38,511 bases of DNA from NCBI GenBank assembly GCA_021781555.1, contig JAJXWQ010000034.1, positions 1 to 38,511 on the forward strand. The letters are read 5' to 3'. The stretch's first letter is position 1; each line of letters begins with the position of its first letter. This DNA is from a bacterium (GTDB lineage: Bacteria > Cyanobacteriota > Sericytochromatia > S15B-MN24 > VGJW01). This document shows positions 1 to 35,263 of the stretch, one piece after another. The notes under the pieces are model-generated. The model was not told where the DNA came from, did not search any database, and saw only the letters and a list, made by a program, of their open reading frames with translations. The position numbers and the translations under genes are program-made.

Positions 1-11
1 AAAAGGCCTAG
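1..11 (+). repeat. CTAG-bounded dispersed element, right end of a copy cut by the window edge
   Basis: The first 11 bases match the right terminus of the dispersed element (AAAAGGCCTAG). The terminal CTAG at 8-11 is also the first CTAG of the next full copy. Two copies therefore lie head-to-tail and share one CTAG. Confidence 0.7.
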
Positions 12-115
12 AGTGCTCCCGGTTTGAATGGATCGAGCCCGATGAGTCAAACGGGGCCCGGTTGCGCAGCGAAGCGACCGCGCAGAGGGACCCGTTCAAC
101 CTGCAAAAGGCCTAG
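8..115 (+). repeat. CTAG-bounded dispersed structured element, full copy 1 (forward)
   Basis: A 108-bp element with CTAG at 8-11 and again at 112-115. Its ends form a symmetric imperfect inverted repeat: CTAG, ten bases, then GTTTGAA at the left, and the mirror image at the right (here slightly mutated to GTTCAACC). The middle holds a long G+C stem (GGGGCCC pairing with GGGACCC in this copy) enclosing TGCGC/GCGCA. A further TCAAAC box in the left half can pair with the left GTTTGA. It lies downstream of the leftward aminotransferase gene, 55 bp from its stop codon. Near-identical copies occur at 4802, 23102 and 33016. Confidence 0.9.
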
Positions 116-4801: not shown

Positions 4802-4909
4802 CTAGAGTGCTCCCGGTTTGAATGGATCGGGCCCGATGAGTCAAACGGGGCCCGGTTGCGCAGCGAAGCGACCGCGCAGAGGGCCCCGTTCAAACTGCAA
4901 AAGGTCTAG
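4802..4909 (+). repeat. CTAG-bounded element, full copy 3 (forward)
   Basis: A 108-bp near-consensus copy with CTAG at 4802-4805 and 4906-4909. The right CTAG, read on the minus strand, is the C-TAG stop codon of the 4906-6102 gene. The element therefore begins at the last codon of that gene and runs into its 3' flank. Confidence 0.93.
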
Positions 4910-6102
4910 CCGCCGAGGAAGTTGGCAACCGTGTCGTGGATCGGCCCCCAGAAGGTCGCCTTGAACATCGTGTCGAAGAGGGCGTAGAAGCCGACCGAAG
5001 CGGCCAGTCCGATCAGGAAGAACGGCAGACCGGCAGTGATGCCGAACAAGCCCCCGACCAGCGCAAGCACGCCGCCGCTGGCCACGGCAGTCAGGCCTCC
5101 CGACACGAATCCGTCGGCCGAGTCTGCCAGCACCGAACCCATGGCCTCGGGCATGCCCTCCTGGCCGGTCAGGACCTGGTAGCCGTTCGAGACGATCGAG
5201 ATGGCCGCCGAGACCAGCCCGGAAATCTTGGCCGCCTTCATGAACCCGCTGAAGAGTTCGCGGACGCCCTGCTTGAACGCCGCCATCCCCACGGGAGGCT
5301 TCACGTCCTTGGCGAGGGTCTTGCCTGCGACCTCGATCTCGCCCGAAGCACCGTTGGCCGGGCCAGCGACCGCATTGCCGGCTCCCCCGGCTGCATTGGC
5401 TCCGCCACTGGCATCCTTGGCCAGGCTGCCGGCGCCGTCAGCGGCCGAGCCAGCATCACCGCCGAGTCCGCCGGCTGAATCGGCGCCGCCGGTCAGACCG
5501 CCGGCGGCTCCCGAGCCGCCCCCTGCGATGCGACCGGCTGCTCGGCCGAGTCCCCCGTGGTCCTCGAGGTCCGCAATGAACTGACGGTCGGTGATGTCGA
5601 CGTTCGTCGTCTCGCGAAATCCGTCGGGCAATGCCACCGTGCTCGCACTCAAATCGATGCTCTGGCCGTCCTCGAGCACGAGGCCAGCATCCTGGCCAGC
5701 GTTACTCGCGACGTCCCTGGCGACGGCGCCCGTGGCGGCGGCGGTGCCAGACGCCGCGCCGGCCGACGAAGCCATGCTGCTCGCATCCCGGCTGACGGCT
5801 CCCGCCGCTTGACCGGCGTCCCCCGCGATCGCCTTGCCAGCTGCGGCCGCCGCTCCGGTGGCCGGGCCCGCGGATGCCGCGAACTTCACGGACTTTATGA
5901 CCGCCTCGGGATCCCGGGTCGTCCAGCCCTTGTAGATGTCCTGCCACCCGTGGATCGCGTCCTCGGAGGTGACCACGTCCTGGACCTTGCCCGAGGCCCA
6001 CTTGAACGCAGGAACCTGCTCGAGCTTGCTGTAGGCGCCCGACAGGGCCCCTCCGATCCGGGAGAAGACCCCGGCGGCAGGAACTGGAACTGAGGTAGCC
6101 AT
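4906..6102 (-). CDS. Ala/Gly-rich protein with C-terminal membrane helices, unknown function
   Basis: A 398-residue protein I do not recognise. Residues 1-70 look folded (VFSRIGGALSGAYSKLEQVP, a WQDIYKGWTTRDPEAVIKSV segment). Residues 75-130 are an Ala-rich stretch with repeated Asp/Arg pairs (GAVSRDA, GAVARDV). A short ordered segment follows (VLEDGQSIDLS, DGFRETTNVDITDRQF), then a Gly/Ala-rich linker to about 260. The C-terminal 120 residues contain strong hydrophobic segments (LVSAAISIVS; ASGGVLALVGGLFGITAGLP; FFLIGLAASVGFYALF), suggesting membrane insertion or pore-like behaviour. There is no signal peptide. The Ala-rich VARD-type leader recalls the starts of the C11 peptidase (11384) and PHP protein (30913). 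Its TAG stop lies in the repeat terminus. The ATG at 6102 has no obvious ribosome-binding site. Confidence 0.75.
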   Translation of the reverse strand: MATSVPVPAAGVFSRIGGALSGAYSKLEQVPAFKWASGKVQDVVTSEDAIHGWQDIYKGWTTRDPEAVIKSVKFAASAGPATGAAAAAGKAIAGDAGQAAGAVSRDASSMASSAGAASGTAAATGAVARDVASNAGQDAGLVLEDGQSIDLSASTVALPDGFRETTNVDITDRQFIADLEDHGGLGRAAGRIAGGGSGAAGGLTGGADSAGGLGGDAGSAADGAGSLAKDASGGANAAGGAGNAVAGPANGASGEIEVAGKTLAKDVKPPVGMAAFKQGVRELFSGFMKAAKISGLVSAAISIVSNGYQVLTGQEGMPEAMGSVLADSADGFVSGGLTAVASGGVLALVGGLFGITAGLPFFLIGLAASVGFYALFDTMFKATFWGPIHDTVANFLGG

Positions 6103-21980: not shown

Positions 21981-23105
21981 ATGTCAAAACGCAACAACGA
22001 CAACAACGCCCCGTCCTCGGCCAGCAACCCAGAGCCGGCCCGGCGGGCAGCGCGATCGGCGCGCCTCGCCGTGGTCGGCCTGGTTTCCGCACTGGCGGTC
22101 GCAGGCGCAGCAGGCGCCACCGTCTACTCGGTGACCCGCGCAAATGCCTATATCGGCACGGTCGATGGCCACCGCCTCGACAAGGCCGATTATGATTTCC
22201 AGATGGCAGCGCGGCGTCACCAGATCCAGAGCCAGCTCGGGGTCGACCTCGCCGGGCCGCAGGGCCAGGAAATGTTGGCAAGAGCCCGGCGGCAGGCGGT
22301 CGCCTCCCTGATCGACCGGCAGATCTTCCTCGACGAGGCAGCGTCCCGAGGCATCACGGTGAGCGACGCCGAGGTGCAGGCGCAGCTCGGCGCCATTCGG
22401 TCGCAGTTCCCCGATGAGCAGAGTTTCCATGCGGCCCTCGACAAGGCCGGTATCAGCGAGGATGCCCTGCGCAAGCAGGTTCGGGACGGGGTCATGGTCC
22501 GCAAGCTTCGCGACGTCCTCACCAAGGATGCCACGGTCAGCGAGGCTGCGGCTCGCTCCTTCTACAAGGCTCACCAGGATCAGTTCACCCGGCCCGAGGA
22601 GGTCGAGGCCTCACACATTCTCGTCAAGACCCCCGCGGAGGCTGCCAAGATCGAGGCCAAGCTCAAGAAGGGGGCGAGTTTTGCCGCCCTTGCCAGGAAG
22701 TACTCGCTCGATGCCGGCTCCAAGGACAAAGGCGGGGACCTCGGCTTCTTCCCGCGGGGACGCATGGTTCCGGCCTTCGACAAGGCCGCCTTCGCTCTCG
22801 CGCCGGGCGAGATCTCGAGCCCGGTCCACACGCAGTTCGGCTATCACATCATCAAGGGGGGGCCGCATCGGCCCGCCCGGACCGAGCCCTTCGCCAAGGT
22901 CCGCGCACAGGTGATCCAGCAGCTCCTGCAGCAACAGCAGGATGTCGAGTTCCAGGCCTGGGAAGCCAAGGCCCGCCAGCAGGCCCACGTCTACATCCGG
23001 CCGCAGTTCGAACCGCTGGCCCCGGCAACCGGTGCCGAAGCGGCGTTGGGCCCCGGCGCTGCCGGGTCGGCCGTTCCTCCCACGACCGCCGGAGCTACCC
23101 ACTAG
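21981..23105 (+). CDS. PrsA/SurA-like parvulin peptidyl-prolyl isomerase
   Basis: A 374-residue membrane-anchored foldase. A basic N-terminus and one hydrophobic helix (LAVVGLVSALAVAGAAGATV, about 30-49) give an inside-out anchor. A SurA_N-like helical chaperone region follows (about 60-200; VDGHRLDKADYDFQ, LIDRQIFLDEAASRGITVSD). The parvulin domain (about 210-310) shows EVEASHILVKTPAEA, FAALARKYSLD, KGGDLGFFPRGRMVPAFDKA, AFALAPGEISSPVHTQFGYH and IIK, all expected PPIase elements. The tail is Ala/Pro-rich. It assists folding of exported proteins. The stop TAG coincides with the CTAG of a repeat copy. Confidence 0.93.
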   Translation: MSKRNNDNNAPSSASNPEPARRAARSARLAVVGLVSALAVAGAAGATVYSVTRANAYIGTVDGHRLDKADYDFQMAARRHQIQSQLGVDLAGPQGQEMLARARRQAVASLIDRQIFLDEAASRGITVSDAEVQAQLGAIRSQFPDEQSFHAALDKAGISEDALRKQVRDGVMVRKLRDVLTKDATVSEAAARSFYKAHQDQFTRPEEVEASHILVKTPAEAAKIEAKLKKGASFAALARKYSLDAGSKDKGGDLGFFPRGRMVPAFDKAAFALAPGEISSPVHTQFGYHIIKGGPHRPARTEPFAKVRAQVIQQLLQQQQDVEFQAWEAKARQQAHVYIRPQFEPLAPATGAEAALGPGAAGSAVPPTTAGATH

Positions 23106-23210
23106 GCCTTTTGCAGTTTGAACGGGGCCCTCTGCGCGGTCGCTTCGCTGCGCAACCGGGCCCCGTTTGACTCCTTCGGGCTCGATCCATTCAAACCGGG
23201 AGCACTCTAG
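23102..23210 (-). repeat. CTAG-bounded element, full copy 5 (reverse)
   Basis: A 109-bp copy almost identical to the one at 33016. Left CTAG 23102-23105 provides the TAG stop of the foldase gene. Right CTAG 23207-23210 ends four bases before the MazG ATG. The element therefore fills the whole intergenic space, and its right end (GGGAG 12 bases before the ATG) is the only ribosome-binding-like sequence available to MazG. Confidence 0.95.
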
Positions 23211-32991: not shown

Positions 32992-33015
32992 ACGCTCCGG
33001 GTAGAGCTTTTGCAG

Positions 33016-33123
33016 CTAGGCCTTTTGCAGTTTGAACGGGGCCCTCTGCGCGGTCGCTTCGCTGCGCAACCGGGCCCCGTTTGACTCATCGGGCTCGATC
33101 CATTCAAACCGGGAGCACTCTAG
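33016..33123 (-). repeat. CTAG-bounded element, full copy 7 (reverse)
   Basis: A 108-bp near-consensus copy, CTAG at 33016-33019 and 33120-33123. Immediately before it (33002-33015) TAGAGCTTTTGCAG looks like the broken end of another copy. Almost identical to the copy at 23102, so spread must be fairly recent. Confidence 0.95.
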
Positions 33124-33260: not shown

Positions 33261-34208
33261 ATGCTCGCATCACCGCACGTTTACTGGGGCCGAGCCTTGC
33301 CGGGGCCGGGCCCCAAGGCGTGCCTCATCGTCAACCCAGCTGCCGGCACCGTCCGTGCCCAGCTTGACTGGGGCATCGTCAGCGGGCGCCTGCGGGAAGC
33401 TGGCTGGTGGGTGGCCCAGCAAGGCACGACCGGCCCGGGGAGCGCCGGCAGCATCGCCGCGAGAGCCGTCCAGGACGGCTGCAAGCTCCTGGTCGTGGCA
33501 GGCGGAGACGGAACGATCAACGAGGTCATCCAGCCCCTGATCGGCACGGATGTCGCCCTGGGGTTGATCCCCGTGGGCACGGCGAACATCCTGGCCCGCG
33601 AACTGGGGATCCCGCTGGATCCGAAAGAGGCCGCCGAGGTCCTCGTCACGGGTCATTCGCGGCATATAGACGTCGGGAAGGCCAGCTGGCCGGGGAAGCC
33701 GGACCGCTACTTCTGCGAGATGGTCGGCATCGGATTCGATGCCGCCACGGTCCACGGGATACTCCCCGAGATGAAGCTCGCGCTGGGCAAGGGTGCCTAC
33801 GTCGTCTCTGCCGTGACGACGTCGTTCACCCACCGGCCGAGCCGGATGCGCCTGCTGATCGACGGCCGGCGGTGCCGGCGTCTGTCTTTCATGCTGGCGA
33901 TCAGCAACACCGGACTCTTCGGGGCCGATTTCCTCAAGATCACCCCGGAGGCGACGGTCGACGACGGCCTGTTCAACGCGGCGCTCTTCCGCGGGCAGTC
34001 GTTCCTGTCAGCCTGGTGGGAGTTCGTGGCGATCGCAGCGCGCCACCTCAAGGAGTGGACGGACGTCGAGTTCTTGACCTTCCGCCAGATCGAGGTCCGC
34101 ACCGCGCGTCCGGTGCCGGTCCAGATCGACGGCGACCCCTTCGGGACGACCCCACTGGTCGTCGACATGGTGCCCAAGGCGCTCAAGGTGATGGCGCCCG
34201 CCAGCTAG
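33261..34208 (+). CDS. Diacylglycerol/lipid kinase family protein (DgkB/YegS-like)
   Basis: A 315-residue kinase of the diacylglycerol-kinase catalytic family. Visible: ACLIVNPAAGT (phosphate-binding strand and turn), LLVVAGGDGTINEVIQPLIG with GGDGT at 81-85, GLIPVGTANILARELGIP, and the C-terminal domain LAISNTGLFGADFLKITPEA and VDDGLFNAALF, all family elements, ending with VQIDGDPFGTTPL. It phosphorylates a lipid such as diacylglycerol or a related alcohol; the exact substrate is not visible. Start: ATG 33261 rather than the long frame that would begin in the repeat. The stop TAG is in the CTAG of the next repeat copy. Confidence 0.92.
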   Translation: MLASPHVYWGRALPGPGPKACLIVNPAAGTVRAQLDWGIVSGRLREAGWWVAQQGTTGPGSAGSIAARAVQDGCKLLVVAGGDGTINEVIQPLIGTDVALGLIPVGTANILARELGIPLDPKEAAEVLVTGHSRHIDVGKASWPGKPDRYFCEMVGIGFDAATVHGILPEMKLALGKGAYVVSAVTTSFTHRPSRMRLLIDGRRCRRLSFMLAISNTGLFGADFLKITPEATVDDGLFNAALFRGQSFLSAWWEFVAIAARHLKEWTDVEFLTFRQIEVRTARPVPVQIDGDPFGTTPLVVDMVPKALKVMAPAS

Positions 34209-34313
34209 GCCTTTTGCAGTTTGAACGGGGCCCTCTGCGCGGTCGCTTCGCTGCGCAATCTGGGCGCGCTTGACTCCTTCGGGCCCGCTCCCTTCCAGCC
34301 GAGACCCGGCTAG
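34205..34313 (-). repeat. CTAG-bounded element, copy 9, supplying both flanking stop codons
   Basis: A 109-bp copy between convergent genes. CTAG 34205-34208 holds the TAG stop of the lipid kinase; CTAG 34310-34313, read on the minus strand, holds the TAG stop of carbamate kinase. The left half is consensus, the right half (GGGCGCGCTTGACTCC; CCCGCTCCCTTCCAG) is diverged. The two genes meet the element at both ends with no spare base. Confidence 0.93.
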
Positions 34314-35263
34314 ACCAGGGCGGCCTCGGGGACGAACTGGGTGCCCGCCTTTCCATCGGCAGCCTCGGCGAGATCGTCGAGGTGACAGATGGCTGCAGCC
34401 AACCCGCCTGACGCCACGAATTCAGCGCAGGCGCGGACCTTGGGCCCCATGCTGCCGGCCGGGAACTGCCCCTCGGCCAGGTAGCGCAAGCCCTGCTCGG
34501 AGGTGAGGCGGTCGATGTCGCGCTGCTCCGGGCGCCCGCGATCGAGCTGGACGCGCCGGACATCGGTCGCCACGATCAGGCGATCGGCGCCGAGGCTCTT
34601 GGCCAGCAAGCCAGACGCCAGATCCTTGTCGATGACCGCAGCGGCTCCGACGAGGTCGCCGTCCTTGCGGACGACCGGAATGCCCCCGCCGCCGCAGGCC
34701 ACGACCAGCGCACCGGAGTCCACCAGCGCACGGATGGCGTCGAGTTCGGCGATCTCGAAGGGCTGCGGAGATGCCACGACGCGCCTCCAGCCACGACCGG
34801 CGTCCTCGATGACCGTCCACCCCTGGGTCTTGGCCATCTGGGCGGCCGTGTCGGCATCGTAGAAGGGGCCCACCGGCTTGGTCGGCTTGGCGAAGGCGGG
34901 ATCGGCTGCGTCGACGACCATGTGGGTGACGACACTCACGATGGGGATCGAAAGCCCGGCCGCAGCCGCAGCATGCCGGAGCCCGCGCACCAGCATGGTG
35001 CCGATCAGGCCCTGGGTCGCGGCCCCGCAAGCATCCATCGGGAGCGGAGGCGTGCGACCCGCGGCGGCGGCCGAACGGATGAGCTCGAATCCGACCTGCG
35101 GGCCATTCCCGTGGGTCAGCGCGACCTTCCAGCCTTGCTTGACCATGCCGATGATCCGCTCGGCGGTCCGCCGGGCCACGGCCTCCTGGTCCTCGAAGGA
35201 AATATGGTCGGGGTCCGAGATCAGTGCATTGCCGCCCACTGCGCATACGATCAACCGATTCAT
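34310..35263 (-). CDS. arcC: Carbamate kinase
   Basis: A 317-residue amino-acid-kinase-fold enzyme that transfers phosphate between carbamoyl phosphate and ADP, normally making ATP in the last step of arginine or agmatine catabolism. Visible: IVCAVGGNALI, LTHGNGPQVGFELIRSAAAA, PIVSVVTHMVVDA, the basic segment RGWRRVVASPQP, VVACGGGGIPVVRKDG and AVIDKDLASGLLAKSLGADR, then FPAGSMGPKVRAC. Length is normal. Start: ATG 35263; the frame extends upstream to 35290 but the family starts at NRLIVCAVGGNA. No arcA/arcB or ygeW-type neighbours are present. Divergent from the deoxynucleoside kinase; convergent with the lipid kinase, with which it shares a repeat at the stop codons. Confidence 0.95.
   Translation of the reverse strand: MNRLIVCAVGGNALISDPDHISFEDQEAVARRTAERIIGMVKQGWKVALTHGNGPQVGFELIRSAAAAGRTPPLPMDACGAATQGLIGTMLVRGLRHAAAAAGLSIPIVSVVTHMVVDAADPAFAKPTKPVGPFYDADTAAQMAKTQGWTVIEDAGRGWRRVVASPQPFEIAELDAIRALVDSGALVVACGGGGIPVVRKDGDLVGAAAVIDKDLASGLLAKSLGADRLIVATDVRRVQLDRGRPEQRDIDRLTSEQGLRYLAEGQFPAGSMGPKVRACAEFVASGGLAAAICHLDDLAEAADGKAGTQFVPEAALV

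What the first reader, a model, noticed from the sequence alone, without database searches (positions are those of the whole stretch)
34205..34313. One copy gives stop codons to two convergent genes at once
Seen: the CTAG at each end is the stop codon of the lipid kinase and of carbamate kinase respectively. CTAG is its own reverse complement, so two convergent genes can share one CTAG as both stops. Inference: the ancestral genes overlapped by four bases at a shared CTAG, and insertion with duplication separated them. This is close to a footprint of the proposed insertion mechanism.
Basis: partly seen in the sequence, partly recalled or inferred. Interest (0 to 1): 0.7.

Follow-up and report, generated by a model that had tools for sequence, protein, structure and literature searches.

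The report
Mobile repeat in a shared stop
A short mobile DNA repeat, present a couple of hundred times in this bacterial genome, landed in the four letters (CTAG) where two genes facing each other most likely both ended, and because the repeat starts with G on either strand it left both genes with a working stop signal.

Summary
CTAG at 34205-34208 holds the TAG stop of a YegS/DAGK lipid kinase; CTAG at 34310-34313 holds the TAG stop of carbamate kinase (arcC) on the other strand. Between them lies one copy of a dispersed element of about 102 bp, with 223 left ends in the genome against 0 for a reversed-pattern control.

The insertion reading is supported. A related element at another locus has a clean empty site in the same-genus relative: one CTAG, 102 bp fewer. 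Five of five orthologous genes there have TAG at the same codon, so stops precede the elements.

One correction: only TA is duplicated, not CTAG. All 18 copies with a different outer base keep the inner G and C, which therefore belong to the element. The target is YTAR, the set of tetramers in which two convergent genes can share a stop. Stop use is general: 53 of 54 coding frames reaching an element end stop there.

The four-base ancestral overlap is inferred, not shown. The only relative keeping this junction (same family) has no element, and its genes overlap by 14 bp with TGA stops.

This is a new MITE-like family with an IS630-type target; its transposase is unproven.

The parts
33261..34208 (+). 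YegS/DAGK-type lipid kinase gene; ends AGC TAG at the element's left end
   Evidence: Pfam PF00781 and PF19279; TIGR00147 above cut-off; coding score in frame to the TAG
34206..34207 (.). TA, left copy of the inferred target duplication
   Evidence: TA kept at both ends while the outer bases vary
34208..34310 (+). element body, 103 bp here (consensus 102); its first base G completes the kinase TAG, its last base C completes the arcC TAG on the other strand
   Evidence: consensus from 98 near-full copies; inner G and C constant
34205..34258 (+). left half of the copy, 54 of 54 bases identical to the young consensus
34258..34313 (+). right half of the copy, diverged (about 60% ungapped identity): the copy is a mosaic and has lost the core hairpin
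34311..34312 (.). TA, right copy of the inferred target duplication; outer base G at 34313
34310..35263 (-). carbamate kinase gene (arcC); ends GTC TAG at the element's right end
   Evidence: PF00696; PRK12352 above cut-off; coding score
33016..33123 (+). consensus-identical copy of the same element, CTAG to CTAG
23102..23210 (+). another copy; its left TAG is the stop of the ORF 21981-23105
4802..4909 (-). another copy; its left-end TAG is the stop of the minus-strand ORF 4906-6102
8..115 (-). another copy, followed at the contig edge by the start of a further tandem copy

Best explanation
This is one copy of a short, non-coding, MITE-like mobile element that inserts at the TA of YTAR, mostly CTAG, and duplicates the TA, most likely by a DDE transposase of the IS630/Tc1-mariner type. 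At this locus it landed in a CTAG that served as TAG stop on both strands for the convergent kinase and arcC genes. The element's first base is G on either strand, so TA + G re-forms a TAG on each side. Neither protein was changed, and the two genes were pushed about 105 bp apart. Shown: the element, its boundaries, the TA/YTAR rule, empty sites elsewhere, and the stops on both sides. Inferred: the transposase type, and that both genes already ended at the CTAG when insertion happened.
For: The genome holds 223 left ends against 0 in the control; 98 near-full copies share boundaries. Of 87 copies with both ends scored, 18 have outer bases other than C..G, and all 18 keep the inner G and C, so a 4-bp duplication is excluded. 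The outer bases are Y on the left and R on the right in nearly all copies, a two-sided palindromic target. Clean empty site: G001 GAATTCGCTAGCGTGGCGAC (20 bp) against 122 bp in G000 with a diverged member inside, a difference of exactly 102 bp. At L196/L261 G001 has no element and the same TAG; five of five orthologous genes have TAG at the same codon. A second double-stop copy exists at L217 (DUF5723 and Omp85-like genes), whose reconstructed empty site is CTAA. An element-free convergent pair sharing one CTAG exists in the same genome at L183:712-715. A full IS630-family transposase gene (NF033545, E 2.6e-72) sits between CTAG sites in G000 and G001, and in G001 it occupies the same CTAG that carries this element in G000. 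IS630-family elements are known to duplicate TA (PMC2170065).
Against: No empty CTAG was found at this junction: G001 lacks both genes and G002 overlaps by 14 bp with TGA stops. ArcC here runs five residues (EAALV) past the point where several homologues end, so its stop may have moved. The element's ends do not match the ends of the one IS630 found beyond shuffled expectation, and its own inverted repeat is short (GTTTGAAYGG, 9 of 10, 11 bases in). TA is invariant, so a TA duplication and an element that carries one TA itself cannot be told apart from sequence alone.
Confidence: 0.75

Rival explanations
1. The element landed in a CTAG that was the stop of the kinase only. ArcC ended a few codons earlier, later lost its own stop, and was extended to the element's TAG. 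In this case the element really supplied the second stop and there was no shared CTAG stop.
For: ArcC homologues often end just after the GT(R/T)IVP motif, while this one has EAALV after FVP; G002 ends QVKAP.
Against: The arcC-side sequence up to the CTAG is outside the element, so with the element removed the frame still ends at the same CTAG. In five of five other loci the stop precedes the element. G002 shows the two genes already overlapping. Native and second double-stop cases exist.
Confidence: 0.2
2. The element is a REP-type repeat moved by a RAYT (Y1 tyrosine transposase), which acts on single-stranded DNA next to a tetranucleotide and makes no duplication.
For: G000 has one Y1_Tnp gene with a degenerate element core upstream of it. 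GTAG REPs are reported to give TAG stops to flanking ORFs (PMC3733652). The consensus core folds into a hairpin (z -2.8).
Against: The target is constrained on both sides (Y left, R right), which fits a double-strand DDE enzyme rather than a one-sided ssDNA target. The unit is 102 bp, not 20-40 bp. No intact element flanks the Y1_Tnp gene, and the core fragment is absent beside the G001 orthologue.
Confidence: 0.12
3. The element is kept between convergent genes because it acts as a two-way transcription terminator or RNA-processing site, and stop-codon placement reflects selection for that job.
For: Many copies sit directly at 3' gene ends (53 ends); the consensus has a stable hairpin.
Against: No terminator-like site is found here, and this copy has lost the hairpin (z -0.3). 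About 30% (26 of 88) of element-free CTAGs outside called genes are already gene stops, so target preference plus avoidance of coding sequence explains most of the placement.
Confidence: 0.08

Closest known systems
RUP, repeat unit of pneumococcus (PMC2229807, PMC3049150)
   Same: About 107 bp, about 110 copies, TA target, thought to be moved in trans by an IS630 element
   Different: RUP ends resemble those of IS630-Spn1; here the ends do not match the one IS630 found. The present family is GC-rich, prefers CTAG, and often sits exactly on TAG stops.
IS630 / ISY100 insertion sequences (PMC2170065; Tenzen and Ohtsubo 1991 cited there for CTAG preference)
   Same: Insertion at TA, often in CTAG, with TA duplicated
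   Different: The element carries no gene and has only a short sub-terminal inverted repeat
GTAG-tagged REPs and RAYTs (PMC3733652)
   Same: High copy number, hairpin core, and ends that supply TAG stops to neighbouring genes
   Different: 102-bp unit, two-sided YTAR target, no GTAG tag, not flanking the Y1_Tnp gene
Convergent 4-bp gene overlaps at CTAA, TTAA, CTAG or TTAG (PMC2174442)
   Same: The inferred pre-insertion state, and the same four tetramers as the element's YTAR target
   Different: Here the overlap is inferred and has been split by an insertion

Membership tests
IS630-type MITE | short (<200 bp), non-coding, many near-identical dispersed copies | tested here: met
   102 bp; 223 left ends; median 98% identity to consensus
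IS630-type MITE | TA target duplication | tested here: met
   TA at both ends, outer bases vary, inner fixed; empty site with one CTAG. A TA carried by the element itself cannot be formally excluded.
IS630-type MITE | CTAG target preference as reported for IS630 | tested here: met
   69 of 87 copies C..G, the rest almost all YTAR
IS630-type MITE | terminal inverted repeats | tested here: inconclusive
   GTTTGAACGG/GTTTGAATGG, 11 bases in from each end; outer 10 bases not inverted
IS630-type MITE | ends similar to those of an autonomous IS630 in the genome | tested here: not met
   alignment scores no better than shuffles for the single IS630 found; other IS630 copies may be missing from the draft assembly
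IS630-type MITE | IS630 transposase present in the genome | tested here: met
   392-aa ORF, NF033545 E 2.6e-72, PF13358
GTAG REP / RAYT | 20-40 bp palindrome tagged with GTAG | tested here: not met
   102-bp unit; outer base C in 98 of 106 left ends, G in 2
GTAG REP / RAYT | transposase gene flanked by the repeats | tested here: not met
   only a degenerate core upstream in G000, none in G001
Rfam RNA family | match above gathering score | tested here: not met
   no match in the window

The most novel reading that the evidence does not exclude
The family is adapted to use stop codons as safe landing sites: its YTAR target equals the set of tetramers in which convergent genes share stops, and G at both termini guarantees that any TAA or TAG hit becomes TAG on both sides, so insertion there never changes a protein. 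The G termini would then be a selected trait rather than a by-product of IS630 chemistry.
Probability: 0.25. Interest if true: 0.55.

Novelty: new member of a known kind. Interest (0 to 1): 0.4.

Why it matters
It shows concretely how a high-copy element can spread in a compact genome without damaging proteins. A TA target inside CTAG plus a terminal G regenerates TAG stops, even for two genes at once. It also gives a readable footprint (one shared stop, then two separated stops) for the splitting of overlapping convergent genes. The rule can be tested in other IS630-type families by asking how often their outermost base is G and how often they sit on stops.

Tried and rejected
A 4-bp CTAG duplication was rejected because the inner bases stay G and C when the outer bases change. 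A RAYT/REP origin was disfavoured by the two-sided target and the lack of flanking repeats. A terminator role at this copy has no support. A direct empty site at this junction was sought in 58 relatives: the same-genus genome lacks both genes, G003 has the kinase followed by the nucleoside kinase gene with no arcC between, G004 has the kinase followed by a SurE-like gene, and only G002 keeps the pair. Linking the element to the found IS630 by end similarity failed. A genome-contig search for arcC gave only distant homologues. At L262 and at the G001 sites L260 and L267 another repeat lies beside the same stop; it does not share the CTAG end, so it was not counted as evidence for the same mechanism.

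Full report
What is there. The window is contig C35 of a 3.8-Mb draft genome. At 33261-34208 (+) lies a YegS/DAGK-type lipid kinase gene, and at 34310-35263 (-) a carbamate kinase gene. The kinase ends AGC TAG, with CTAG at 34205-34208. ArcC ends GTC TAG on the other strand, with CTAG at 34310-34313. The stated coordinates are exact.

The interval is a copy of a dispersed element. A 24-base left-end pattern with up to 3 mismatches occurs 223 times in the genome, against 0 for the same pattern read backwards. I read 80 genome stretches plus the window and collected 151 matches, 98 of them near full length. The consensus runs CTAG to CTAG over 108 bp, most copies have that length, and the median identity to the consensus is 98%. 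In the same-genus genome G001 the family is present mostly as diverged copies, in one other genome of the family only core fragments match, and none of the other 56 relatives searched has a match.

What is duplicated. In 87 copies with both ends scored, the base just inside the left TA is G and the base just inside the right TA is C almost always, while the bases just outside vary: 69 are C..G, 9 C..A, 5 T..G, with few others. All 18 copies with departing outer bases keep the inner G and C. So G and C belong to the element, only TA is duplicated, and the target is YTAR. Tandem copies repeat at 104 bp, which is 102 plus one TA.

Empty sites. In G001, the site of a diverged member in L203 reads GAATTCGCTAGCGTGGCGAC, with one CTAG; G000 has 122 bp between the same flanks, 102 more, and the insert matches the element profile (E 4.7e-18). 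At L196/L261 G001 has the gene ending ACC TAG with no element. In five of five orthologous genes tested, G001 has TAG at the same codon. At those loci the stops were there first and the element came to them.

Stop codons in the stretches read. Of coding frames that run into an element end, 53 stop exactly at that end's TAG and 1 does not (p = 1.9e-24 against one third). Much of this follows from the target: 26 of 88 element-free CTAGs outside called genes are gene stops. Since the element starts with G on both strands, insertion into the TA of TAG or TAA always leaves TAG. The four tetramers that allow convergent genes to overlap by four bases are CTAA, TTAA, CTAG and TTAG (PMC2174442), which is YTAR itself. 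A second double-stop copy is at L217, where the reconstructed empty site is CTAA. One element-free convergent pair in the fetched sequence shares a CTAG (L183:712-715). So the double-stop arrangement is an expected, uncommon outcome of the rule.

This junction in relatives. The pair is convergent and element-free in G002 of the same family, where the genes overlap by 14 bp and both stop with TGA. G001 lacks both genes; in G003 and G004 the kinase is followed by other genes. Overlap of the ancestral genes is thus supported at family level, but the four-base CTAG state is inferred from the rule, not observed. ArcC carries five residues past its usual end, so a later stop loss cannot be excluded.

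This copy. Its left 54 bases are identical to the young consensus while its right half is about 60% identical (Fisher p about 1e-8). A likely history (inference) is an old insertion, a second young insertion at the old copy's left CTAG, and collapse of the tandem pair into one mosaic. The core hairpin is lost here and no terminator-like site is seen.

Mechanism. Insertion at TA with CTAG preference is the signature of IS630/Tc1-mariner transposases (PMC2170065 and the 1991 study it cites). A complete IS630-family transposase gene lies between CTAG sites in G000 and in G001, and in G001 it occupies the very CTAG that carries this element in G000. Its ends do not resemble the element's ends, so that it moves the element is a proposal. 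A RAYT origin is less likely because the target is constrained on both sides. That repeat termini can supply TAG stops is already on record for GTAG REPs (PMC3733652), so the stop-codon role is not new in kind.

Limits. The genome is a draft of 181 contigs and repeats may be collapsed. Gene frames were scored with a simple codon model trained on eleven window genes. The 324 kb examined were chosen around elements, so background rates are approximate.

Noticed in passing
L201:1781-1888 and L256:1790-3330: The CTAG carrying this element in G000 carries an IS630-family insertion sequence in G001; the far flanks differ, so G001 is also rearranged there.
   Followed up: partly
L206 near 2400, L210 near 2680: Two element copies have the IS630 end (TAGTACCTCTGCACAG) directly at their right CTAG, near contig edges; IS630 and element insertions seem to use each other's CTAG ends.
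   Followed up: no
L260:1-58, L267:1-57: In G001 two of the same stop codons are followed at once by a different repeat (AGTTGCCCACCGTCTGCGCCGACA...), 26 matches in G001 and 1 in G000.
   Followed up: partly
G001, many contigs: A palindromic repeat (GAGGGAACC...GGTTCCCTC) with dozens of places in G001, also seen in G000 flanks such as L171 and L185.
   Followed up: no
window 33009-33019: GAGCTTTTGCAG just upstream of the copy at 33016 looks like a leftover left end of an earlier copy.
   Followed up: no
L251:1257-1297: A degenerate element core lies upstream of the single Y1_Tnp (RAYT-like) gene in G000 and is missing beside its G001 orthologue.
   Followed up: partly
fetched G000 stretches: Genes not at elements use TAG in 54 of 149 cases and TAA in 14, high TAG use relative to TAA.
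   Followed up: no
G003 and G004 kinase loci (L159, L157): ArcC is missing between the kinase and the nucleoside kinase or SurE-like gene, so arcC was gained or lost here within the family.
   Followed up: no
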